This document shows positions 9,143 to 63,659 of a stretch of DNA of 64,000 nt, piece after piece. Location: positions 620,001 through 684,000 of the forward strand of contig NZ_CP024901.1 in the NCBI RefSeq assembly GCF_003343245.1, written 5' to 3'. The translations under genes and the position numbers were made by a program. Each line of letters starts with the position of its first letter. Positions within the stretch are counted from its first letter, which is position 1. The notes below the pieces were generated by a model that did no database searches, was not told the origin of the DNA, and was given only the letters and a program-made list of their open reading frames with translations. The stretch comes from Photorhabdus laumondii subsp. laumondii. Its GTDB lineage: Bacteria > Pseudomonadota > Gammaproteobacteria > Enterobacterales > Enterobacteriaceae.

Positions 9143-11059
9143 ATGGCTAAATGGCAATGCCTTACGATGGCTATAGGGTTGATTTTTATCTCTGTAGCCG
9201 TAAATGCTGATTCTCTGGAAAATCAGCGACAGAGATATCAGCAGATTAAGCAAGCGTGGAATGTCAGCGATAGGGCTGAAGTTGCGAGACTGATGCCCAC
9301 ATTGAAAAACTATCCTCTTTATCCTTATCTGCAATACCGGGAACTGGCTCAGGATCTGTCACTTGCCACCCCGACGCGGATTCGTGATTTTATTGATCGT
9401 CACCCCAATCTGCCTCCCGCACGTTCTTTATCATCCCGTTTTATCAATGAACTTGCACGCCGCGAAGAGTGGCGCGAGCTACTGGCGTTCACCTCTACTG
9501 CACCAAAATCGATTACCGCCCGCTGTCATTACTATTTTGCTAAATGGGCTACAGGTGAGGAGCAGATTGCCTGGCAGGGAGCGAAAGAAGTTTGGTTGAA
9601 TGGGCGTTCTTTACCAGACAGTTGCGATAAATTATTTGATGTTTGGCAGCAAACAGGCCATTTATCAGTAAAACTGATATTACAGCGTATTAGTCTCGCG
9701 TTAAAAGCGGGCAATACATCATTAGTCAGTTACCTCGCTAAACAGTTACCACAGGGATACAAAAGTATCAGTGAAGGTCTGATTAAGTTGCAGAATGATC
9801 CGGTTACCGTAACAGACTTTGCTGATCATACCGGGCCGACTGATTTTAGCCGTGTAGCCACTTTAGCGGCTTTTTCGCGTTTCGCACGTCAAGATCCGGA
9901 GCAGGCAAGAGTGATCATCCCATCAATTGTCAGAGTGCAAAAGATGACTGCAAGTGAACGTCAGCGATTAAAAGATATTGTTGCCTGGCAGTTAATGGGT
10001 GATGTGAGTGATGAACAGGAAAAGTGGCGTGATGATGTGATCCGCGATAGCCAATCTGTTGCATTGCTTGAGCGTCGTGTTCGTTTGGCGTTGGGTCATG
10101 CAGATGAGCGTGGTGTGGCTCAATGGATAAAATTGCTACCGTTAGAGAACCAAGACAAAGAGGAATGGCGTTATTGGCGAGCTAACATTCTATTGGCGCA
10201 GGGTAATAAAAGTGAAGGTGAGGCAATATTGCGTCAGCTAACAGAAGGCCGTGGTTTTTATCCAATGGTTGCTGCGCAGAAACTGAATGTCAGCTATCCG
10301 CTGATGATGAATAGCGCAAAAAAGCCAGATGCTGCTATTGCTTCAATACCCGAAGTACAGAGAGTAAGAGAGTTGCTATATTGGCAAATGGATAGCCTTG
10401 CTCGCATAGAGTGGAGTTACTTGGTCGCCAGCCAAGATAAATTAAAACAACAGCAACTGGCGCGTTATGCTTTCGATCAAAAATGGGCGGCGCTTAGTGT
10501 ACAGGCGACAATAACCGGAAAAATGTGGGACTACCTTGAAGAGCGTTTTCCATTGGCATGGCGGCGGGAATTTAGTCACTTCACGGCAAATAAAGGGATT
10601 TCTCAAAGTTATGCAATGGCGATAGCCCGTCAGGAAAGTGCCTGGAATCCGCAAGCTAATTCGCCAGTTGGGGCAATTGGGTTGATGCAAGTGATGCCAG
10701 AAACGGCGCAAGATACGGTTAAGCAAAATGGAATCCAAGGATATATAAACAGTAGCCAACTTATAAACCCGCTGACGAATATCGAAATCGGTACTGCTTA
10801 TCTCGAATCGGTTTATCAGCGCTTTGGTAATAATCGGATACTGGCCAGCGCTGCTTATAATGCCGGACCGACTCGTGTAGATCGCTGGTTATCTAACAGT
10901 GGTGGGCGATTAGATGCGATAGCTTTTATTGAAAGTATTCCATTTTCTGAAACCCGCAATTATGTCAAAAATATTTTGGTTTATGATGTCTTCTACACTT
11001 ATTTCATGGGTAAGTCATCAAATGTATTGACTGACGCTGAATGGCAAAGGCGTTATTGA
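9143..11059 (+). CDS. slt: Soluble lytic murein transglycosylase Slt70
   Basis: A periplasmic exo-acting transglycosylase that cleaves the MurNAc-GlcNAc bond with formation of 1,6-anhydro ends. 639 residues against 645 in E. coli. A signal peptide covers about residues 1-23 (cleavage near VNA-DSLEN), followed by a long alpha-superhelical domain and the C-terminal SLT domain. The catalytic Glu is E498 in ARQESAWNPQA, followed by GAIGLMQVMPETA and AYNAGPTRV. The ATG at 9143 is favoured by GGGAGGAG upstream and the signal peptide; the frame is open back to 9065. trpR follows. Confidence 0.94.
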   Translation: MAKWQCLTMAIGLIFISVAVNADSLENQRQRYQQIKQAWNVSDRAEVARLMPTLKNYPLYPYLQYRELAQDLSLATPTRIRDFIDRHPNLPPARSLSSRFINELARREEWRELLAFTSTAPKSITARCHYYFAKWATGEEQIAWQGAKEVWLNGRSLPDSCDKLFDVWQQTGHLSVKLILQRISLALKAGNTSLVSYLAKQLPQGYKSISEGLIKLQNDPVTVTDFADHTGPTDFSRVATLAAFSRFARQDPEQARVIIPSIVRVQKMTASERQRLKDIVAWQLMGDVSDEQEKWRDDVIRDSQSVALLERRVRLALGHADERGVAQWIKLLPLENQDKEEWRYWRANILLAQGNKSEGEAILRQLTEGRGFYPMVAAQKLNVSYPLMMNSAKKPDAAIASIPEVQRVRELLYWQMDSLARIEWSYLVASQDKLKQQQLARYAFDQKWAALSVQATITGKMWDYLEERFPLAWRREFSHFTANKGISQSYAMAIARQESAWNPQANSPVGAIGLMQVMPETAQDTVKQNGIQGYINSSQLINPLTNIEIGTAYLESVYQRFGNNRILASAAYNAGPTRVDRWLSNSGGRLDAIAFIESIPFSETRNYVKNILVYDVFYTYFMGKSSNVLTDAEWQRRY

Positions 11060-28792: not shown

Positions 28793-29677
28793 TTGAAATT
28801 TTCTGTGATGTCGATGATTTTTGCCGTTTTTTCATCCCTCAATGGGAACAATTTTGTCTCGATAGCGGGCATCGTTTACGCCGCCGACAAGGTCATATGT
28901 ATCCCAGTGAAATCATGACCATTTTGATCCTTTTTCATATGTCGCATTACCGTGATTTTAAACATTTTTATCTAGAACATATTTGGAAATATCACCATAA
29001 GGATTTTCCAACCTTGCTTAGCTATCCTCGTTTTGTCAGTGTGGCTCCTTCCGTTTTGGTGCCATTATGCAGCTATCTGACTCAATTAAAAGGGAAACCC
29101 ACAGGCATTGCTTTTATTGATTCCACCCGTTTGAGTGTCTGCCATAACATTCGCATCCCTCGACATAAGGTCTTTGCGGGGATAGCAAAGCGCGGAAAAA
29201 ATTCAATGGGCTGGTTTTACGGTTTCAAATTACACCTGGTTGTCAATCATCAGGGTGAAATTCTCGCGCTTAAAGTGACTCCGGGTAATGTGGATGATCG
29301 GGAACCTGTTCGTGAATTATCAAAAGAATTAACGGGTTCTCTTTACGGTGACAAAGGTTACCTCAGCCAGGAATTGGCGGACGATTTAGCTAAAACCGAT
29401 GTCACTTTCATCACGAAAAAACGGCGTAACATGAAAGCGAGTATGCAAGCTGAGTGGGATAAGATAATGTTAAAAAAGCGTTTTATCATTGAAACGATTA
29501 ATGGGCAATTAAAAACTCTTTCTCAAATAGAGCATTCCCGCCACCGAAGTATAAAAGGCTTTCTGTTGTGCGTTTTAGGTGGATTGATTGCTTACTGCCT
29601 TAAATTGAAGAAGCCATCACTGAAAGTTTTCTACTCAGAAGACGATTTTTCAATGACGGATTAAGCAGAATTCGGGT
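28688..29677 (+). mobile_element. IS982-family insertion sequence, complete, 990 bp
   Basis: The element is bounded by inverted repeats beginning ACCCGAATTCTG (left) and its complement CAGAATTCGGGT (right), and flanked by the 7-bp duplication TAATTTA. The length and single transposase match IS982-family elements. It has inserted in the protease gene of the IetAS-like pair in the same orientation as that gene. Related remnants occur at 56688-56869 and 62269-62450. Confidence 0.93.
28780..29664 (+). CDS. IS982-family DDE transposase
   Basis: 294 residues, intact. The order of acidic motifs fits a DDE enzyme: AFIDSTRLSV (first Asp), SLYGDKGYLS (second Asp) and RFIIETINGQLK (Glu). The C-terminal stretch [24 protein letters not shown] is typical of the family. 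A purine-rich ribosome-binding site (GAGGGGGG) precedes ATG 28780. Because it is undamaged the element may still move. Confidence 0.92.
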   Translation: MDNLVEIFCDVDDFCRFFIPQWEQFCLDSGHRLRRRQGHMYPSEIMTILILFHMSHYRDFKHFYLEHIWKYHHKDFPTLLSYPRFVSVAPSVLVPLCSYLTQLKGKPTGIAFIDSTRLSVCHNIRIPRHKVFAGIAKRGKNSMGWFYGFKLHLVVNHQGEILALKVTPGNVDDREPVRELSKELTGSLYGDKGYLSQELADDLAKTDVTFITKKRRNMKASMQAEWDKIMLKKRFIIETINGQLKTLSQIEHSRHRSIKGFLLCVLGGLIAYCLKLKKPSLKVFYSEDDFSMTD

Positions 29678-29684
29678 TAATTTA
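29678..29684. repeat. Target-site duplication, right copy
   Basis: TAATTTA immediately after the IS right end, identical to 28681-28687. Confidence 0.9.
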
Positions 29685-55753: not shown

Positions 55754-56687
55754 CCCCCGCGGTTTTTGTGCTGGTGTTGACCGTGCTATCAGTATTGTAG
55801 AACGCGCACTGGAATTATATGGTGCGCCGATCTACGTTCGTCATGAAGTGGTGCATAACCGTTATGTTGTAGATAACCTGCGCAAGCGGGGGGCTATCTT
55901 TATTGAAGAAATTTCAGAAGTACCGGATGATGCGATTCTGATTTTTTCGGCGCACGGTGTTTCACAGGCTATTCGTGCTGAAGCGCGTTCTCGCAATTTG
56001 ACAATGTTGTTCGATGCGACTTGCCCTCTAGTGACTAAAGTCCATATGGAGGTAGCAAGAGCTAGCCGCAAGGGCAAAGAAGCTATTCTGATTGGTCACG
56101 CTGGACATCCCGAAGTTGAAGGTACAATGGGTCAGTACAACAATGCGGAAGGTGGAATGTATCTGGTTGAATCTCCGGCAGATGTATGGAACTTGAAAGT
56201 CAAAGATGAAGACAATTTGTGTTTTATGACTCAAACCACATTATCTGTTGATGATACTTCAGAAGTGATTGATGCACTTAATGCACGATTCCCAAACATC
56301 GTTGGTCCCCGTAAAGATGATATCTGCTATGCGACGACTAACCGCCAGGAAGCGGTACGGGATCTGGCGTCTGACGCCGATGTTGTCTTGGTTGTAGGTT
56401 CGAAGAATTCATCTAACTCTAATCGCCTTGCTGAGTTAGCTCAGCGGGTTGGTAAACCTGCTTACCTGATAGATTCTGCTGAGGATATTAAAGAAGAGTG
56501 GATTACTGGCATCTCTTTGGTTGGCGTAACCGCGGGCGCTTCGGCACCGGATATTTTAGTTCAGCAAGTTATTGAACGCCTGAAATCTCTTGGTGCTGAT
56601 TCCGTCCAAGAATTACATGGTAGAGAAGAAAATATTGTATTTGAAGTGCCAAAAGAGTTACGTGTTGAAGTTAAAGAAATTAGCTAA
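55734..56687 (+). CDS. ispH: 4-hydroxy-3-methylbut-2-enyl diphosphate reductase
   Basis: The last enzyme of the MEP isoprenoid pathway, a [4Fe-4S] protein. 317 residues against 316 in E. coli. The cluster Cys residues are C12 ([12 protein letters not shown]), one in [11 protein letters not shown] and one in [11 protein letters not shown]. The ATG 55734 is preceded by GGAGG and gives [12 protein letters not shown] remnant IS begins one base after the stop. Confidence 0.97.
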
Positions 56688-56869
56688 CCCGAATTCCGTT
56701 TAAGCCGTCACTGGGAAATCTTCTTCTGAGTAGAAAACTTTCAGTGATGGCTTCTTCCATTTGAGGCAGTATGCAATCACCCCATCTAACACGGTCAACA
56801 GAAATCCTTTTATACTTCGGTGACGCGAATGCTCTATCTGAGGAAGGGTTTTTAATTGCCCATTAATCG
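56688..56869 (-). pseudogene. IS982-family remnant: transposase C-terminus and inverted repeat
   Basis: Starts with ACCCGAATTCCG, one base different from the inverted repeat of the complete IS at 28688. On the minus strand it encodes the last 55 transposase residues (INGQLKTLPQIEHSRHRSIK..., ending SEEDFPVTA), closely matching the intact copy. Its upstream part is replaced at 56870 by group II intron sequence. It abuts the ispH stop codon. Confidence 0.88.
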
Positions 56870-56950
56870 GTTGAGCAGACCGTAGGAACTGCTCCCACAG
56901 TCTCTCGCAGAACGGTACGTGAGTCTCTCGACTCATACCGCTCCCATCAA
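56870..56950 (-). mobile_element. 3' end of a group II intron (domains V and VI)
   Basis: On the minus strand 56943-56910 is a 34-nt domain V: a GAGCGGTA / TACCGTTC lower helix, a two-base bulge, and an AGTC / GACT upper helix capped by GAGA. A domain VI-like hairpin follows (GTGGGA ... TCCTAC) and the sequence ends ...GCTCAAC exactly where transposase coding sequence resumes (CGATTAATG). The remainder of the intron, including its reverse transcriptase, is not visible, so this is a fossil. Confidence 0.75.
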
Positions 56951-56991
56951 GTAAATCGTCCAAAGCAAGCCAGATAAAAGGAGCTCCAACT

Positions 56992-57205
56992 ATGTCATCA
57001 CCTACCGTAAAAATCCTGCGTATGCCTGACAGTTGTCAACAAACTAGGTATCGCTCGCTCGACCATTTACGATTGGATCAACCCGAAGTCACTGCGTTAT
57101 GACAATACATTCCCTAAGCAGCGCCAGCTAGGAAAGTAATCCGTCGGTTGGCTCGAATCAGAACTGGATTAGTGGCTTCTCCAACGTGAAACACTAGCCC
57201 CTTGA
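56992..57205 (+). pseudogene. alpA-type prophage regulator, frameshifted
   Basis: ATG 56992 (GGAG upstream) starts MSSPTVKILRMP, then the homologous reading continues in another frame as VVNKLGIARSTIYDWINPKSL, TFPKQRQLGK, an in-frame stop, SVGWLESELDQWLLQRETLAP. This is the AlpA/Xis-like helix-turn-helix family that controls P4-like and other integrative elements. At least one frameshift and one nonsense change make it a pseudogene. It marks the island as formerly mobile. Confidence 0.75.
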
Positions 57206-57300
57206 GTCATTCATCTACAACGTGCCGGAGGTTTTATCTCCGGCAAAAAACATTTATCACTGACCTTTCTTATAATTATCCGAGTTGATACCAGAGCAAA

Positions 57301-58332
57301 TCAAGATTGCTTGTAAGCTTTGAGCAAAGATTCCGGAATAAACGTCAGATTGCCTCTTGCCCTTGAGCAGGCCACATATAGTTTATTGCGTGTCTCCGCA
57401 TTGATATCCCGAAAACTTCCCTTTTTCCAAGCTCTTACATTAGCGGGATTAAGGACTACACATACATCATGATAGTGGTCTACTCCCTTCGATGCTCCCC
57501 AATTTTGGGAGTGGCAGGAATACTTGTGGTGTTCCCTGTAAAACAGCTTCACCGTTTCCGGATCCCGGTAGAGAGCAAGTACAGCTTCCGGGTTATCCTC
57601 GTATCTAATGACACTTTCCCGGCGATCATAAGCTTCGATTTCGATACCAATCTTTTCCGTAATAAAATCGCAAACACTTTTGCTACATCTGCGGCTCTTT
57701 TTGAGACTGTCGGTATCGACGAGCAATTTAGCCTTTTTAAATTTAGCCTCGTAGACCGTGTAATCTTTGTGAAGACTAGCGTTCACATTACCATCTCGGC
57801 TTGTGTCGAATGTGTGTTGGAAAAAATCGCCAACAAAGGAGACATTTAACTCAGCGGCACTTATGGCTAGCAGAAGGTTAAAATCATGCCCAGCAAAGTC
57901 CTGAACCTCATCCACGAAGAAAGCATCAAAATACTTCTCCATACGCGCTATGATCGCACCAACCAGATGAGATTGCTCGATGAATTTGGCAAGACGGTTG
58001 GCGTAAACCTGACGATTGGTTGACACGTAACGCCGGTCGTCAGTCAATGCATACCGTGGGTATGCCAAGGGAAGTTTGAATGTGATACCTATGGTATTCT
58101 TATCCGATCGTAGAAATGGCCGGTAGCAAAAACCGTGTAAAAATTTGAAATACGTGTAGAGAGTAATATTTGCTGGAAAGTAACCGAATCGATTTATAAT
58201 TTTTCCACGCAAATTGCTGTAGTTAGACTCTGTATAAGTAACGATAAGAAAGCGCTTCTCCTCATCAAGGCTGGCAACAAGACGGGATGTCTTACCCGAT
58301 CCGGCAACGGCAAATACTACTCTCTTATCCAT
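57301..58332 (-). CDS. UvrD-like helicase, compact, partner of an OLD nuclease
   Basis: 343 residues, superfamily 1 helicase. Motif I is AVAGSGKTSRL (8-18), motif Ia region IVTYTESNYSNLR, motif II FFVDEVQDFAGHD (about 140), motif III FVGDFFQHTFD, and motif VI LYVACSRARGNL near the end. It is much shorter than UvrD or GajB (about 490 or more), so accessory subdomains are reduced. It overlaps the OLD gene by 16 bases. OLD nucleases next to a UvrD-type helicase define class 2 OLD systems, of which Gabija is the best known. Confidence 0.82.
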   Translation of the reverse strand: MDKRVVFAVAGSGKTSRLVASLDEEKRFLIVTYTESNYSNLRGKIINRFGYFPANITLYTYFKFLHGFCYRPFLRSDKNTIGITFKLPLAYPRYALTDDRRYVSTNRQVYANRLAKFIEQSHLVGAIIARMEKYFDAFFVDEVQDFAGHDFNLLLAISAAELNVSFVGDFFQHTFDTSRDGNVNASLHKDYTVYEAKFKKAKLLVDTDSLKKSRRCSKSVCDFITEKIGIEIEAYDRRESVIRYEDNPEAVLALYRDPETVKLFYREHHKYSCHSQNWGASKGVDHYHDVCVVLNPANVRAWKKGSFRDINAETRNKLYVACSRARGNLTFIPESLLKAYKQS

Positions 58333-59885
58333 GTGATTGCCTGCTGAATGTAATTTGGCGCGACAAGTTCGGTTCCCTTTTGTTCGAGCAATTCGAATGC
58401 AGCTTCCGTCTTGTTTTTTAACATATATTCTTCTACGGTAAGCTTTTTTCGACCTGCTGCGAACTGACCTTCACAAATGGTCGTATTATCTTGGTATATG
58501 CAAACCTCGAAAGTGTACCGAGCATCGTCAGCGTCTGCGAAAATCTGCACAGAATCTGAAATGAGGTCAGCATAGTTAGTAACACAATTGCTTTTGTAGT
58601 CCCCGTCATTGTCACGGATAGCCGCAACCTTGATGCCAAGCAACTTGGCTAGCTCAAGATAACGCTTGAAACTTGTTCCATCGACAGAGATTACATAGAT
58701 ACCATCGGTATCAGTACTTGCACCTCCAGTGCAGTTTTTATAGAGGGCATCCATGAGGATAAACTCAGCATCTCCCTCCACAAGGATAGCCTTCTTACAC
58801 AACGCAAGTTCCAGCACATTGTTGTCGGGAGCCTTCATGAAGAAATTGGCTGTGCTCTGACTGAGATCTTTGAGAGAAGTTGGTTGGGACAAGTTTTCTT
58901 CGCTCAATATTAGTACTTTCTTGAGGTTCAACCGAGTTGCAATCAAACTACTATGAGTAGCGATGAAAAGCTGCTTTTTGACCGAACCCCGGATGCGATC
59001 AATAAGCTTATGCATATGGACATGGCTAAGATGATTCTCCGGCTCTTCGAGAAGGAGGATATCAAGTACGTGTTCGCGATTGCGCAAGGCAAATTCCGTC
59101 TTGATAAAGCATTGGCGACCTTTCCCCTTACTATCGATCGGGATATCGCCTTCAGTAATAATAATATCCGTTTCGACACTCGCTTTTGGGCTTGTCCGAA
59201 CATCGAATTTGTAGATGTCCAATGCATCATTCATCGTTTTGAAAACTACTCTCTTAAACTCAGACTTAGCTTTACGGTACTCAAAACTGTGATGATTACG
59301 CTCTACAACAGACGCATGAGTGGTATACATGGTGCGGGTATACTCACGAGTGGCATACTCGCTATTGATCTGAGAACTATCTATGAGTAAGTGCTGGAGC
59401 GGCTTTTTATATGGAAGGATAGTCTCGTCCGTGAAGGTTAGAAAACGGATGCTATAGTACTCAAAAGGAAAGTTATCGTGCCTCTCAGCTAAAATCGTCT
59501 GAATTTCTTGTGTGTATTTATCAACAGGCTTGCATACCAACTTGATGCCTAAGTGATCTATGCTCTTGCTGTTATTACGGCCATCTAGTTCGTGGTGACC
59601 TTCAATCCCATCTAGGTATACCTCTATCAGCAGCTCAGGTAGTTCGACGATTTTTCTCTCACCTTTCAGGAATTCCGAGATACATTCCATATTGAAAAGG
59701 GTTTCAAGACCGAGCGATTCTACCTTACTTCGACTGGCGTTGAGCGCGATATCAATTGCCTGGAGCACCGAACTTTTGCCAGCTTCATTGCCGCCAACCA
59801 GAATATTTAATTCAGGATCGAATTCTAATTCAAGATTTTTAAATCGTTTGAAGTTTTTCAGAACCAATCTGCGTATTATTGCCAC
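58317..59885 (-). CDS. OLD-family ATPase/TOPRIM endonuclease (class 2, GajA-like)
   Basis: 522 residues. An SMC-like ATPase with Walker A GGNEAGKSS (31-39), Walker B LLLEEPENHLSHVH near residue 305 and the following LFIATHSSLIA, then a TOPRIM domain with Glu in KAILVEGDAEFIL and Asp pair in AAIRDNDGDY. These are the nuclease residues of OLD/GajA proteins. It starts ATG 59885, 54 bases after the DUF4928-like gene, and overlaps the helicase gene. The pair probably senses and cuts invading DNA; the trigger is unknown. Confidence 0.85.
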   Translation of the reverse strand: MAIIRRLVLKNFKRFKNLELEFDPELNILVGGNEAGKSSVLQAIDIALNASRSKVESLGLETLFNMECISEFLKGERKIVELPELLIEVYLDGIEGHHELDGRNNSKSIDHLGIKLVCKPVDKYTQEIQTILAERHDNFPFEYYSIRFLTFTDETILPYKKPLQHLLIDSSQINSEYATREYTRTMYTTHASVVERNHHSFEYRKAKSEFKRVVFKTMNDALDIYKFDVRTSPKASVETDIIITEGDIPIDSKGKGRQCFIKTEFALRNREHVLDILLLEEPENHLSHVHMHKLIDRIRGSVKKQLFIATHSSLIATRLNLKKVLILSEENLSQPTSLKDLSQSTANFFMKAPDNNVLELALCKKAILVEGDAEFILMDALYKNCTGGASTDTDGIYVISVDGTSFKRYLELAKLLGIKVAAIRDNDGDYKSNCVTNYADLISDSVQIFADADDARYTFEVCIYQDNTTICEGQFAAGRKKLTVEEYMLKNKTEAAFELLEQKGTELVAPNYIQQAITWIRE

Positions 59886-59939
59886 CAGATTTCCTTCCTA
59901 TGCGAAATTTTGATTTACCCTAAATAAGAGATATCCCCA

Positions 59940-60935
59940 TCAATCTCTTGAAAGAAGTTTCACAATCCACTTTGGCTCATCGATCATAAGGGATTTATCG
60001 ATCTCAATATTTGAGATACGTTCGTTATATGTACGTATCAAATGAGCAACTCCCTTGCGTATTCTATCACTTTCATAGATAGCAATTTCTTCAATATTAG
60101 TACCAATGAAAATTTCTGCTGCTTGAACGGAGATTTGGTCAGACATGCCAACGTTTTCAGCCATTTGACGAGCAGCCAATACCTTACTTTCCAGCGTCAG
60201 TATTACAGGTCGGTAACCAGCTCTCTTGTTTTCAACGCAGCGAGAAACAAGCTTTTCCATAGGGGCTGTAGTGACATGAAATGCTGTCGTTCCAACTTGA
60301 AAATCACCTTCCCGATCGGTTTGCATATCTGCTGCATTAGCTCGGTCGAGGCCGATCTTAATTTCTGGAAAACGCAATTGTAATTTCGCACCAATTAGAT
60401 GTTGGAGAACAACCCCGGTAGGCTTATCAGAACGTTCAGCCGCTGCATCCAGAATATCAGAAATGATCGATGATACTGGTTTGGTGGTTTCAATATCGAC
60501 CGTAATTCTTTGTTTATCGAAATAATCAATGCGAACACAGTTTGTGAAGAAATCTTCAAGCAACAAAGAGAGATGATTAGTGTTCAACGTAGCTCCAGAA
60601 GAGCGATTGATGCCATTCATAGCGTCGCGAAATGAAACCGCTAAGTGGATCGTTCCTCTCGATGTTCTCCCACCCTCTCGTGTAAATAGGCGGGTCTCGC
60701 CATGCTGTTCAAGAATCTTGGCGATAGTGTTGCCACTCAAACCACGAACCTGGCTCCTACCCTCGCTGTAAAGTCGGCCATCATCGATGGGAAAACCATC
60801 AGCGATCATGCGTGAAACCACAAGCCCCACGTTCATGACATTGGTATTTATGGAGCCATTTTGTGCCCGCTGGCTTTCATACCACGCTTTAGCTGCATTC
60901 AAATACTGCTCAATAAGAGTATCTTTCTCACCCAT
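59940..60935 (-). CDS. DUF4928-like protein, possible type II restriction endonuclease
   Basis: 331 residues, no classical signature visible by eye. The N-terminal third (LSGNTIAKILEQHGETRLF) may bind DNA. A middle region contains TVDIETTKPVSSII and GLDRANAADMQTDREGDFQVGTTAFHVTTAPMEKL; the spacing of D/E and the following FHVTTAP could be a PD-(D/E)xK-like core. It overlaps the cytosine methyltransferase gene by 8 bases, the usual place of a cognate restriction enzyme. The DUF4928 assignment comes from memory of methyltransferase neighbours and needs confirmation. Confidence 0.6.
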   Translation of the reverse strand: MGEKDTLIEQYLNAAKAWYESQRAQNGSINTNVMNVGLVVSRMIADGFPIDDGRLYSEGRSQVRGLSGNTIAKILEQHGETRLFTREGGRTSRGTIHLAVSFRDAMNGINRSSGATLNTNHLSLLLEDFFTNCVRIDYFDKQRITVDIETTKPVSSIISDILDAAAERSDKPTGVVLQHLIGAKLQLRFPEIKIGLDRANAADMQTDREGDFQVGTTAFHVTTAPMEKLVSRCVENKRAGYRPVILTLESKVLAARQMAENVGMSDQISVQAAEIFIGTNIEEIAIYESDRIRKGVAHLIRTYNERISNIEIDKSLMIDEPKWIVKLLSRD

Positions 60936-62067
60936 TTATTATTTTTCCATCGAACATCTGAATACTAACCAGGTGTGGAATGAGCATGTGCTTGGCGATC
61001 CATCCGACAACAGGTACAGCAACGGCATCACCAAACCCATAATGAACTTGTGAATCGCGCATATTATCAAGAGAATACCAACCGGCCCCCATCAGACGTG
61101 CATATTCTAGTCCAGTCATCCACCTGATTTTCACACTGCCGCCGCCCATAATTACTACCGCTTGCTTTGATGAACCACCACGCGCGGTACGTAAACAACC
61201 AGAGACATCTTCGGCTCGCATTTCCCATACAGGAATTCCGTTCCGGGTACGACGATAAGCTGTTCGGGCAGTCATGTTTGGTAATTCGATAAATGCTTCC
61301 AACCGTTCTCGTTGGACTGGAGCCATTGAGTCTACAAATCGTTTAACCCGATCGCCTCCCCACCATCTGGGGTCATTATGCGGCATTTGTTCTATTTCAC
61401 GGGTTAAACCTTCGCTGAGTAAATCTGGCGCTTTTGGTAGCGGCATCATGAAAGTACGAATTTCAGCGTCTTCATGAAGCCAGGCAAGCCAATCAGGGCG
61501 TAAGCAAGTATCTTGCTCCCCGCCGTCAATAGGATACTGAGCGCCAATTAGGAATAAACGTGGGCGTGATTGCGGGATAAAGCGGCGAGCATCTAGAGTA
61601 ATGGCATCTACAGCATAACCTAGTGAATTGAACTCCTTGGCTGCCGCACGCAAATCTTCACGATTATGAGATGAAGCAAGGCCAGTCACATTCTCCAGGG
61701 CTATAACTTTAGGTTTTCGCTCTTTCATCTCTGCTATCAGACGAGTAAACCCAAAAAAAGCAGATGATTCACGTCCACCACGTAAACCAGCCCTTTTTCC
61801 TGCAAGGCTGAGATCTGTACACGGTGAAGAGGACCATGCAACATCTACAGTTGGTAGATCATCGCCACAAAGCGAATGCACATCAGCCAGCAAAAGCTCG
61901 TTGCCTCCCCACTGGCCTTCGTACATAGCCTTTTTATTAATGTCGTAGTCATTAGCCCAAAGAGTTTTTATACCAGCGAGTTCCAAACCTGCCCTTGCCA
62001 GGCCGATACCAGCAAAAAACTCTAAAGCTGTCCAATCGTGTTGACGGCGAAGCGGCACTACATTCAC
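60928..62067 (-). CDS. C5-cytosine DNA methyltransferase (type II)
   Basis: 379 residues. Motif I is ALEFFAGIGLARAGLELAG (15-32), motif IV SSSPCTDLSLAGKRAG with catalytic Cys at 83, motif VI ALENVTG (about 123-129), motif VIII RFIPQSRPRLFLIGAQ, and motifs IX/X LEYARLMG ... YGFGDAVAVPVVGWIAKHML. The recognition sequence cannot be read from the sequence. The start is GTG 62067 with GGAGG a few bases upstream. It is first gene of the four-gene defence operon. Confidence 0.93.
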   Translation of the reverse strand: MNVVPLRRQHDWTALEFFAGIGLARAGLELAGIKTLWANDYDINKKAMYEGQWGGNELLLADVHSLCGDDLPTVDVAWSSSPCTDLSLAGKRAGLRGGRESSAFFGFTRLIAEMKERKPKVIALENVTGLASSHNREDLRAAAKEFNSLGYAVDAITLDARRFIPQSRPRLFLIGAQYPIDGGEQDTCLRPDWLAWLHEDAEIRTFMMPLPKAPDLLSEGLTREIEQMPHNDPRWWGGDRVKRFVDSMAPVQRERLEAFIELPNMTARTAYRRTRNGIPVWEMRAEDVSGCLRTARGGSSKQAVVIMGGGSVKIRWMTGLEYARLMGAGWYSLDNMRDSQVHYGFGDAVAVPVVGWIAKHMLIPHLVSIQMFDGKIING

Positions 62068-62268
62068 TTGGTTCCTCCTTCAATTCGTCCCGTATCATCC
62101 CATAAACAGGTTCATTAGTCACATACAGGACAAAGGTTGCTTCAGCTTTTGATTAAACGCTTCCTCCCGCGCTTCTGCTTCCCTTACTTCATTCATTCAA
62201 CAGTTCAGTAGAGCTGTCAGTTTATTGATAAAGTGCTGGTTTTTTTATCCGGCCCGTTGTTTTAATTA
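62068..62268. other. Upstream region of the defence operon
   Basis: About 200 bases holding the minus-strand operon promoter. No gene or clear operator is seen. Confidence 0.4.
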
Positions 62269-62450
62269 ACCTGAATACTGGTTAAGCCGTCACTAACATA
62301 TTCATTTCTGAGCGGGAAATATTCAGTGACGGTTTGTTCTCTTTGAGACAATAAGCGATGAGTCCACCCAACACATTCAACATTAATACCTGTACACTAT
62401 GATGCCGTGAATGCTCTATCTGAGAAATATTCTTTAACTGATCATTTGAT
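62269..62450 (-). pseudogene. IS982-family remnant, second copy
   Basis: Starts ACCTGAATACTG, two bases different from the intact IS end. The minus strand encodes 55 transposase-like codons ([20 protein letters not shown]..., [15 protein letters not shown]..., MLVTA stop), more diverged than the left remnant. It has the same orientation as the remnant at 56688, so the two bracket the defence operon. Confidence 0.82.

Positions 62451-63659
<1,209 letters not shown>

What the first reader, a model, noticed from the sequence alone, without database searches (positions are those of the whole stretch)
57301..62067. Four-gene defence operon joining a restriction-modification pair to an OLD nuclease/helicase pair
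A C5-cytosine methyltransferase, a DUF4928-like protein (possible restriction enzyme), an OLD ATPase/TOPRIM nuclease and a UvrD-like helicase are encoded on one strand with overlaps of 8 and 16 bases and one 54-base gap. The tight linkage suggests one transcription unit. Gabija-type pairs and type II systems are each known; a single operon of the four suggests that the OLD/helicase pair may depend on methylation status or on ends made by the restriction enzyme. That functional link is inference.
Basis: partly seen in the sequence, partly recalled or inferred. Interest (0 to 1): 0.82.

Follow-up and report, generated by a model that had tools for sequence, protein, structure and literature searches.

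The report
Known PluTI restriction pair beside Gabija
In the genome of an insect-killing bacterium, an already described restriction-modification system sits directly upstream of a compact form of the known Gabija anti-phage pair inside a decayed mobile element; in the relatives examined the two pairs nearly always live apart, so this looks like two known defences stacked together, not a new joint system.

Summary
In detail: four minus-strand genes at 57301-62067, overlaps of 8 and 16 nt, one 54-nt gap. The genome is Photorhabdus laumondii TT01-like. The upstream pair is the PluTI type II system; its GGCGCC 5mC mark is already mapped in TT01. The downstream pair is a compact Gabija (Class 2 OLD nuclease plus a 343-aa UvrD-type protein). 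The proposed functional link is not supported. Of 80 gajA relatives from named genomes (the best 80 of 127; 68 with at least 2.3 kb upstream of gajA), one has the PluTI-type pair: P. noenieputensis, where, in a draft assembly, gajB and the 3' half of gajA are missing and the restriction pair is intact. Eight close DUF4928 loci elsewhere show no gajAB in the fetched flanks. The tight junctions lie inside each pair and persist when the pairs are apart (start codon 16 nt inside the gajA end in 77 of 78 loci). The genes lie in a ~6-kb insertion between ispH and dapB bounded by IS982-family remnants; 10 of 12 Photorhabdus genomes have the empty site. Best reading: two independent defence modules stacked in a decayed IS982-bounded element, probably co-transcribed. 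A second, diverged copy of the set is hinted at but could not be fetched.

The parts
60928..62067 (-). C5-cytosine DNA methyltransferase, M.PluTI (first gene of the cluster)
   Evidence: PF00145 136.7 bits; PDLC03243 MTase_II 682.8 bits; C5 motif strings I, IV, VI, VIII, IX, X located (motif names recalled); position agrees with the PluTI locus of TT01 in PMC6092372
59940..60935 (-). DUF4928 protein, R.PluTI restriction endonuclease; overlaps the methyltransferase by 8 nt
   Evidence: PF16280 543.4 bits; PDLC03543 REase_II 786.4 bits over 1-331; PMC6092372 names the pair PluTI
59886..59939 (-). 54-nt gap between the two modules, with a Shine-Dalgarno-like AGGAAGG just before the GTG of gajA; the scan lists no promoter-like or terminator-like site of the minus strand inside the gap
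   Evidence: sequence; scan: the nearest minus-strand promoter-like site is a 9-of-12 match at 60499-60470, inside the DUF4928 gene
58317..59885 (-). gajA: Class 2 OLD-type nuclease, ABC ATPase + TOPRIM (522 aa)
   Evidence: PDLC00102 376 bits; PF20469 64.7 bits; model pLDDT 90.4, best Foldseek match B. cereus GajA 8sm3_A, E 1.4e-16; candidate active-site residues E370, E374, D425, D427, T458, E460, K492 invariant in 35 aligned sequences
57301..58332 (-). gajB: compact SF1A (UvrD/PcrA-type) protein, 343 aa
58317..58332 (-). 16-nt gajA/gajB overlap (gajB starts inside the end of gajA)
   Evidence: start codon at exactly this offset in 77 of 78 surveyed loci with a gajB match
56681..56872 (.). 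left remnant: one end (192 nt) of an IS982-family element
   Evidence: 87.5% identical to the end of a ~1-kb IS of the same genome, whose transposase is IS982 family (NF033520, 290.3 bits)
57011..57136 (+). relic of an AlpA-type island/prophage regulator, with stops on both sides
   Evidence: PF05930 36.8 bits, cut-off 21; frames read
62263..62712 (.). right remnant: internally deleted IS982-family copy, same orientation as the left one
   Evidence: 62263-62493 (72%) and 62562-62712 (74%) match the two ends of the IS; terminal inverted repeats 62261-62285/62694-62718
56680..56687 (.). TTAGCTAA, possible left target-site duplicate (end of ispH)
   Evidence: sequence, seen by eye; 7 of 8 identical to 62710-62717
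62710..62717 (.). TTAGTTAA, possible right target-site duplicate
   Evidence: sequence, seen by eye

Best explanation
The locus is a roughly 6-kb acquired element between ispH and dapB. It carries two known, separately functional defence modules, one behind the other on the same strand. Module 1 is the PluTI type II restriction-modification system: M.PluTI marks GGCGCC with 5-methylcytosine and R.PluTI cuts unmarked DNA. Module 2 is a compact Gabija system: a GajA nuclease (ABC ATPase + TOPRIM) and a short GajB motor-fold protein, most likely a complex that is held inactive in healthy cells and cuts DNA when infection is sensed. The modules are probably co-transcribed from a promoter upstream of the methyltransferase, but each is self-contained. 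Remnants of an IS982-family element at both ends suggest that it arrived as, or was built like, a composite transposon that has since decayed. Shown here: gene content, family membership, module junctions, separate occurrence, empty sites, IS remnants. From print: PluTI methylation in TT01; the Gabija mechanism in B. cereus. Recalled only: R.PluTI cleavage. Inferred: co-transcription, anti-phage activity of this gajAB copy, transposon origin.
For: Module 1 is PluTI: PMC6092372 places it at TT01 679941-682068 with GGm5CGCC methylated at 470 of 500 sites in exponential phase; the window's pair lies at 679940-682067 of its genome. Module 2 is Gabija: PADLOC, fold, helicase-like gene in tandem and overlapping as in Class 2 OLD (PMC6755086 passages). 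Independence: 1 of 80 gajA loci carries the PluTI-type pair (68 with at least 2.3 kb upstream); 0 of 5 viral, 0 of 2 plasmid and 0 of 1 whole-genome loci with a close DUF4928 (70-78% identical) carry gajAB in the fetched flank; among 5426 E. coli genomes gajAB fills at least 80% of the query in 5 (~78% DNA identity) and the PluTI pair in none. Junctions inside each pair persist apart: start codon at -16 in 77 of 78 loci; 8-nt methyltransferase/DUF4928 overlap in L147, L148, L139 and L144. P. noenieputensis has the PluTI pair whole, but no gajB and a gajA that breaks off at an IS end. GC3 differs: 36.8 and 38.0% (restriction pair) against 46.3 and 44.8% (gajA, gajB). Ten of 12 Photorhabdus genomes have ispH and dapB joined without the insert; both flanks carry IS982 ends.
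Against: The two modules are on one strand, 54 nt apart, with no promoter-like or terminator-like site listed inside the gap, so expression may be shared. The window and P. noenieputensis share one insertion site, so the modules have been carried together. DUF4928 cluster P0124 (88%) and GajB cluster P0243 (82%) both give 10,901 bases as longest contig, consistent with another joint copy. The survey kept 80 of 127 confirmed loci. In L140-L142 the mechanically called methyltransferase/DUF4928 overlaps were 14, 23 and 23 nt, not 8. The paper that described the element (Khan 2010) could not be opened. No phage test is known to me for this gajAB copy.
Confidence: 0.85

Rival explanations
1. The four genes are one functional system: GajAB acts on ends made by R.PluTI, or its activity is gated by the 5mC mark set by M.PluTI.
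For: Same strand, 54-nt spacing, no promoter-like site listed in the gap; both pairs act on DNA; possible second joint copy on a 10,901-base contig.
Against: 79 of 80 gajA loci lack this pair (67 of the 68 with at least 2.3 kb upstream), and none of the eight close DUF4928 loci fetched shows gajAB in its flank. Immediate neighbours of gajAB that look like restriction genes are few and of unrelated types among the families shown, the lists being cut at 25 families (upstream 73 proteins: DUF4928 1, type IIG 1; downstream 74: type III methylase 2, C5 methylase 1). P. noenieputensis has one half only. B. cereus gajAB alone protects E. coli from T7 (passage of PMC8136825).
Confidence: 0.07
2. The OLD/helicase pair is a repair helper of the restriction system: it processes chromosome breaks that R.PluTI makes when methylation lapses, rather than acting on phage.
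For: A role of Class 2 OLD in repair or replication was speculated (PMC6755086 passage); the GajB model is closest to PcrA/UvrD/Rep.
Against: Not found in the fetched flanks of the eight other close DUF4928 loci and broken in P. noenieputensis while the restriction pair is whole, so it does not seem needed to tolerate R.PluTI; sequence and fold match Gabija defence proteins.
Confidence: 0.04
3. The modules are merely adjacent: gajAB has its own promoter and is not co-transcribed with PluTI.
For: gajA has its own Shine-Dalgarno-like site; a weak promoter-like site (9 of 12) lies inside the DUF4928 gene at 60499-60470 on the minus strand; gajAB is found in many other settings.
Against: No promoter-like site is listed in the gap itself, though the scan is crude and found fewer sites than shuffled sequence (6 against a mean of 11.9); 9 of 75 upstream neighbours lie 50-58 nt ahead of gajA on the same strand, so a place close behind another gene recurs.
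Confidence: 0.25

Closest known systems
PluTI restriction-modification system (Photorhabdus TT01; Khan et al. 2010; methylome PMC6092372)
   Same: Same genes at the same position; GGCGCC 5mC methylation mapped in TT01 (PMC6092372 passages). Recalled, paper not opened: R.PluTI is a type IIF enzyme cutting GGCGC/C, and the paper described a putative mobile element with the methyltransferase, the endonuclease, two genes of unknown function and 16-bp terminal repeats shared with insertion sequences.
   Different: Nothing in the restriction pair. Added here: the two further genes, which the paper (as recalled) left unknown, are assigned to Gabija.
Gabija (GajA/GajB; Class 2 OLD nuclease with UvrD-like partner)
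   Same: Two-gene order, domains, candidate active-site and helicase motifs, overlapping frames, fold.
   Different: Compact: GajB 343 aa against 494 residues for B. cereus GajB (PMC10681800 passage); 67 residues lie between helicase motifs IV and V, so the 2B-like insert is probably missing (inference); gajA/gajB overlap of 16 nt almost fixed in this clade.
IS982-bounded composite element
   Same: Two same-orientation remnants of one IS982 family flank the cargo; possible 8-nt target duplicate (7 of 8).
   Different: No intact transposase in the element; both IS copies are partial, so it is probably no longer mobile by itself.
SGI1-related islands of cluster 7 with DUF4928/C5-methyltransferase cargo (PMC9035990)
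   Same: The same kind of restriction pair as island cargo (passage).
   Different: Another backbone; accompanied there by Vsr and an AAA family ATPase; I did not look at those sequences, so whether that ATPase is of OLD type is open.

Membership tests
Gabija / Class 2 OLD | OLD-type ABC ATPase followed by TOPRIM nuclease domain in one protein | tested here: met
   PF13175 + PF20469; GajA profile over residues 3-519; model, leading Foldseek matches GajA and OLD
Gabija / Class 2 OLD | UvrD/PcrA/Rep-like gene immediately downstream, often overlapping | tested here: met
   gajB found in 78 of 80 relatives, start codon at -16 in 77 of 78
Gabija / Class 2 OLD | Two-metal active site: E, E, DxD, T, E and a lysine (E400, E404, D455, D457, T506, E508, K562 of B. 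pseudomallei OLD) | tested here: met
   E370, E374, D425, D427, T458, E460, K492 are invariant in 35 sequences; residue list from passages of PMC6755086; equated by motif order, not by direct alignment to that protein
Gabija / Class 2 OLD | GajB is an SF1A helicase-fold protein with DExQD box | tested here: met
Gabija / Class 2 OLD | GajA about 50 aa longer than Class 1 OLD because of a helical insert in TOPRIM | tested here: inconclusive
   522 aa, close to Class 1 T. scotoductus OLD (chain of 528); helices follow the TOPRIM core in the model, but no superposition of the insert was made
Gabija / Class 2 OLD | GajA-GajB complex that protects from phage | not testable with these tools
   no assay for this copy; shown for B. 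cereus (PMC10781630 and PMC8136825 passages)
PluTI type II restriction-modification | C5-methyltransferase plus DUF4928 endonuclease, adjacent | tested here: met
PluTI type II restriction-modification | Identity of the locus with TT01 PluTI | tested here: met
   position agrees to one base with PMC6092372 Table 1; sequences were not compared with a named TT01 record
PluTI type II restriction-modification | Cuts GGCGC/C and is blocked by methylation | not testable with these tools
   GGm5CGCC methylation is in print; cleavage is recalled from Khan 2010, which is not held
Composite transposon (IS982) | Cargo flanked by two copies of one IS | tested here: met
   partial copies at 56681-56872 and 62263-62712
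Composite transposon (IS982) | Target-site duplication | tested here: inconclusive
   TTAGCTAA/TTAGTTAA, 7 of 8, the left one being the end of ispH; found by eye after seeing the empty sites
Composite transposon (IS982) | Functional transposase | tested here: not met
   no full transposase ORF between ispH and dapB in the ORF list; so a decayed element, not a working transposon

The most novel reading that the evidence does not exclude
The cassette is a self-stabilising two-layer defence unit that has spread as a unit: the PluTI pair makes the element hard to lose (cells that lose it are cut by leftover endonuclease) and thereby keeps the compact Gabija pair, while GGCGC/C ends or unmarked DNA made by R.PluTI feed or trigger the compact GajAB, whose GajB lacks the 2B domain of ordinary Gabija.
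Probability: 0.08. Interest if true: 0.55.

Novelty: new member of a known kind. Interest (0 to 1): 0.25.

Why it matters
It closes a small gap: the two genes that, as I recall, were left unassigned in the PluTI mobile element are a compact Gabija system. It also tests, and mostly removes, a tempting inference: that four tightly packed defence genes in one operon act together. The P. noenieputensis locus suggests that the restriction half persists without the Gabija half. If the two layers did cooperate, it would be an unusual case of a restriction system feeding an OLD nuclease.

Tried and rejected
Tried without result or set aside. (1) Papers: the word 'PluTI' drowned in unrelated words; Khan 2010 is not held under DOI or PMC id, so what I say of it beyond title and citation is recall. 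Searches for R.PluTI/M.PluTI/plu0599/plu0600 (1 paper, PMC6092372), DUF4928 (1 paper) and Gabija with Photorhabdus (1 paper on Vibrio, listing only) gave no paper that assigns these two genes to Gabija; that holds only for this library. (2) A near DNA match of 56700-62700 in E. coli genomes: none. (3) Phage records: gajA matches in 3 of 50,697, all under 60% identity, not followed. (4) A general association of gajAB with restriction genes: 73 upstream and 74 downstream neighbours were scanned out of 75 and 75 found in 80 loci (L019 left out on both sides as a duplicate of L018; the 2154-aa upstream neighbour of L024 left out for the residue limit); restriction-type matches were few and mixed, but the tallies show only the first 25 families of 65, 54, 35 and 75. 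A crude motif scan of larger ORFs in these loci also flagged nine possible N6/N4-methylase motifs, some of them plainly not methylases. (5) GGCGCC avoidance: 0 sites in the element and 4 in the 64-kb window, too few to mean anything. (6) A conserved leader before gajA: 20 leaders and the window's read by eye, nothing shared across distant loci. (7) PDB sequence search with a GajA profile listed no Gabija chain at E 0.01; the fold search did. (8) DUF4928 has no meaningful PDB sequence match (4 chains, best E 0.38). (9) A Xenorhabdus search was not possible with the handle I had.
Full report
What is there. Pfam and PADLOC agree on the families; NCBIfam has no model for the DUF4928 protein and none above cut-off for the last two genes, and recognises the first as a C5 methylase. 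PADLOC's best GajA and GajB models match over residues 3-519 and 1-332, and the two best GajB models are themselves short (369 and 365 positions), so the compact kind is already inside that library's Gabija.

Where it is. The window is bases 620001-684000 of a single-contig genome of 5,687,677 bases. The neighbours read as ileS, lspA, fkpB and ispH on one side and dapB on the other (names recalled from the translations). A 98%-identical gajA in Photorhabdus noenieputensis and DUF4928 relatives named Photorhabdus place it in that genus. PMC6092372 (passages seen) lists the PluTI system at 679941-682068 of TT01, one base from the window's 679940-682067, and reports bisulfite mapping of GGm5CGCC at 470 of 500 motifs in exponential phase. 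The paper cites Khan et al. [quoted passage not shown] That paper is not held; from recall, its abstract describes the endonuclease, the methyltransferase, two genes of unknown function and 16-bp terminal repeats shared with insertion sequences.

The element. A 185-nt direct repeat (71%) lies at 56680-56864 and 62262-62446. A search of the window's genome with the left flank finds, besides both flanks and one short partial match, 18 further copies; comparison of their surroundings gives a ~1-kb insertion sequence whose transposase is IS982 family (NF033520, 290.3 bits against a cut-off of 130). The left flank is 192 nt of one end of such an IS (87.5%); the right flank is an internally deleted copy (72-74%) in the same orientation. 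In 10 of 12 Photorhabdus genomes the end of ispH and the region just before dapB are adjacent without the insert; the other two, the window's and P. noenieputensis, carry it at the same place. A TTAGCTAA/TTAGTTAA pair at the outer ends (56680-56687, 62710-62717) may be a target duplicate, found by eye. An AlpA-type regulator relic (PF05930, 36.8 bits) lies inside the left part, which suggests that other island DNA was once here.

Do the pairs belong together? I fetched relatives of gajA from the named-genome collection: 127 confirmed, the best 80 kept, 48 to 98% identical. By HMM on their ORFs, 78 of 80 have gajB. A mechanical ORF call put the overlap at 16 nt in 77 of 85 pairs, at 160 nt in 7 and at 19 nt in 1 (these 85 include viral, plasmid and whole-genome loci and the window); looking at the fixed offset, a start codon lies exactly 16 nt inside the gajA end in 77 of 78 survey loci. 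Only L037, P. noenieputensis, has the PluTI-type pair beside gajA. Of the 80, 68 have at least 2.3 kb upstream of gajA, so the fully examined fraction is 1 of 68. In L037 gajA stops matching after residue 278, no gajB is found, and the sequence runs into the IS end and ispH; the methyltransferase and endonuclease are full length. The simplest reading is a deletion from the IS into gajA; as it is a draft assembly and the junction lies in a repeated IS end, a misassembly is not excluded.

The reverse survey. Close DUF4928 relatives (70-78% identical) were fetched from viral contigs (5), plasmids (2) and one whole genome (L144): none of these 8 has a gajA or gajB match in its fetched flank. The flank is 1.5 kb for L144; L143 is cut just before the gene, so its methyltransferase was not seen. 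The methyltransferase/DUF4928 overlap is 8 nt in L139, L144, L147 and L148 and was called as 14, 23 and 23 nt in L140-L142. Three distant loci (31-37% identical) have no gajAB match either, within 1.5 kb. In sampled genomes DUF4928 is rare: 2 of 149 in the family, 3 of 394 in the order, 2 of 369 in the class and 1 of 61 in one genus, the window's own genome counted in the first three and some genomes drawn more than once. Among 5426 E. coli genomes, gajAB at ~78% DNA identity fills at least 80% of the query in 5, and the PluTI pair in none; 62 have a partial match to the latter, in the 30 rows listed over a DUF4928 gene annotated in two pieces. One such remnant was opened and shows no OLD or UvrD-like neighbour in its annotation. 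The two E. coli gajAB places that I opened sit in integrase-bearing islands with other cargo; in one, a type II endonuclease and a C5 methyltransferase lie ~8.5 kb further on, beyond the integrase.

Neighbours of gajAB in general. Among the families shown for 73 upstream and 74 downstream neighbours (each list cut at 25 families), restriction-type matches were: upstream one DUF4928 (necessarily the P. noenieputensis one, the only DUF4928 in these loci) and one type IIG; downstream two type III methylases and one C5 methylase. Four upstream neighbours are pPIWI_RE proteins and one is Shedu SduA. Nine of 75 upstream neighbours lie 50-58 nt ahead of gajA on the same strand. So gajAB is a module found behind various genes, some of them defence genes, and PluTI is one case. 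Third-position GC also separates the pairs (36.8 and 38.0% against 46.3 and 44.8%), weak evidence of separate origins.

Against my reading. The genes may well form one transcript: no promoter-like or terminator-like site of the minus strand is listed in the gap, although one weak promoter-like site lies inside DUF4928 at 60499-60470, and the scan found fewer sites overall than shuffled sequence (6 against 11.9) and is crude. The DUF4928 cluster P0124 and the GajB cluster P0243 report the same longest contig length, 10,901 bases, and two contigs each; if that is one contig, the four-gene set may exist in a second, diverged copy. I could not fetch it, since no metagenome scans were allowed. One further joint copy would make joint transfer likelier, but would not by itself show functional coupling.

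Verdict. The sequence observation is confirmed. The restriction pair is already known in this very strain group, the other pair is a new member of a known kind, and the idea that the two form one system is not supported. Interest is modest: the assignment of the remaining genes of the PluTI element to compact Gabija, and a natural locus that keeps one half.

Noticed in passing
58317-58332 and survey loci L006-L085: The gajA/gajB overlap is nearly locked at 16 nt (start codon at the same offset in 77 of 78 loci), in Proteobacteria and Bacteroidota alike, which suggests strict translational coupling and constrains both protein ends.
   Followed up: partly
L037 (P. noenieputensis) 10001-11000: gajA breaks off after ~278 codons at an IS982 end and gajB is absent, while the PluTI pair upstream is whole (draft assembly).
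   Followed up: partly
57011-57136: Relic of an AlpA-type island regulator inside the element, between the left IS remnant and gajB.
   Followed up: partly
upstream neighbours of gajAB in the 80-locus survey: Four of 73 upstream neighbours match pPIWI_RE proteins; the one paper search for pPIWI with Gabija and 'adjacent' found nothing. The tally does not name the loci.
   Followed up: no
PMC6092372 Table 1: The table labels plu0599 as M.PluTI and plu0600 as its partner, yet the text lists plu0600 among the annotated DNA methyltransferases; with R.PluTI recalled as plu0599, the table labels look swapped.
   Followed up: no
29492-29679: A further end of the same IS982-family element in the window (genome 649492-649679), one of 18 further copies in the genome.
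   Followed up: no
L149 8001-10570 (Citrobacter plasmid): A 48%-identical gajAB pair lies between two vapBC toxin-antitoxin pairs on a plasmid; gajA relatives, all under 60% identity, occur in 2399 of 72,556 plasmid records, most in Klebsiella and Escherichia.
   Followed up: no
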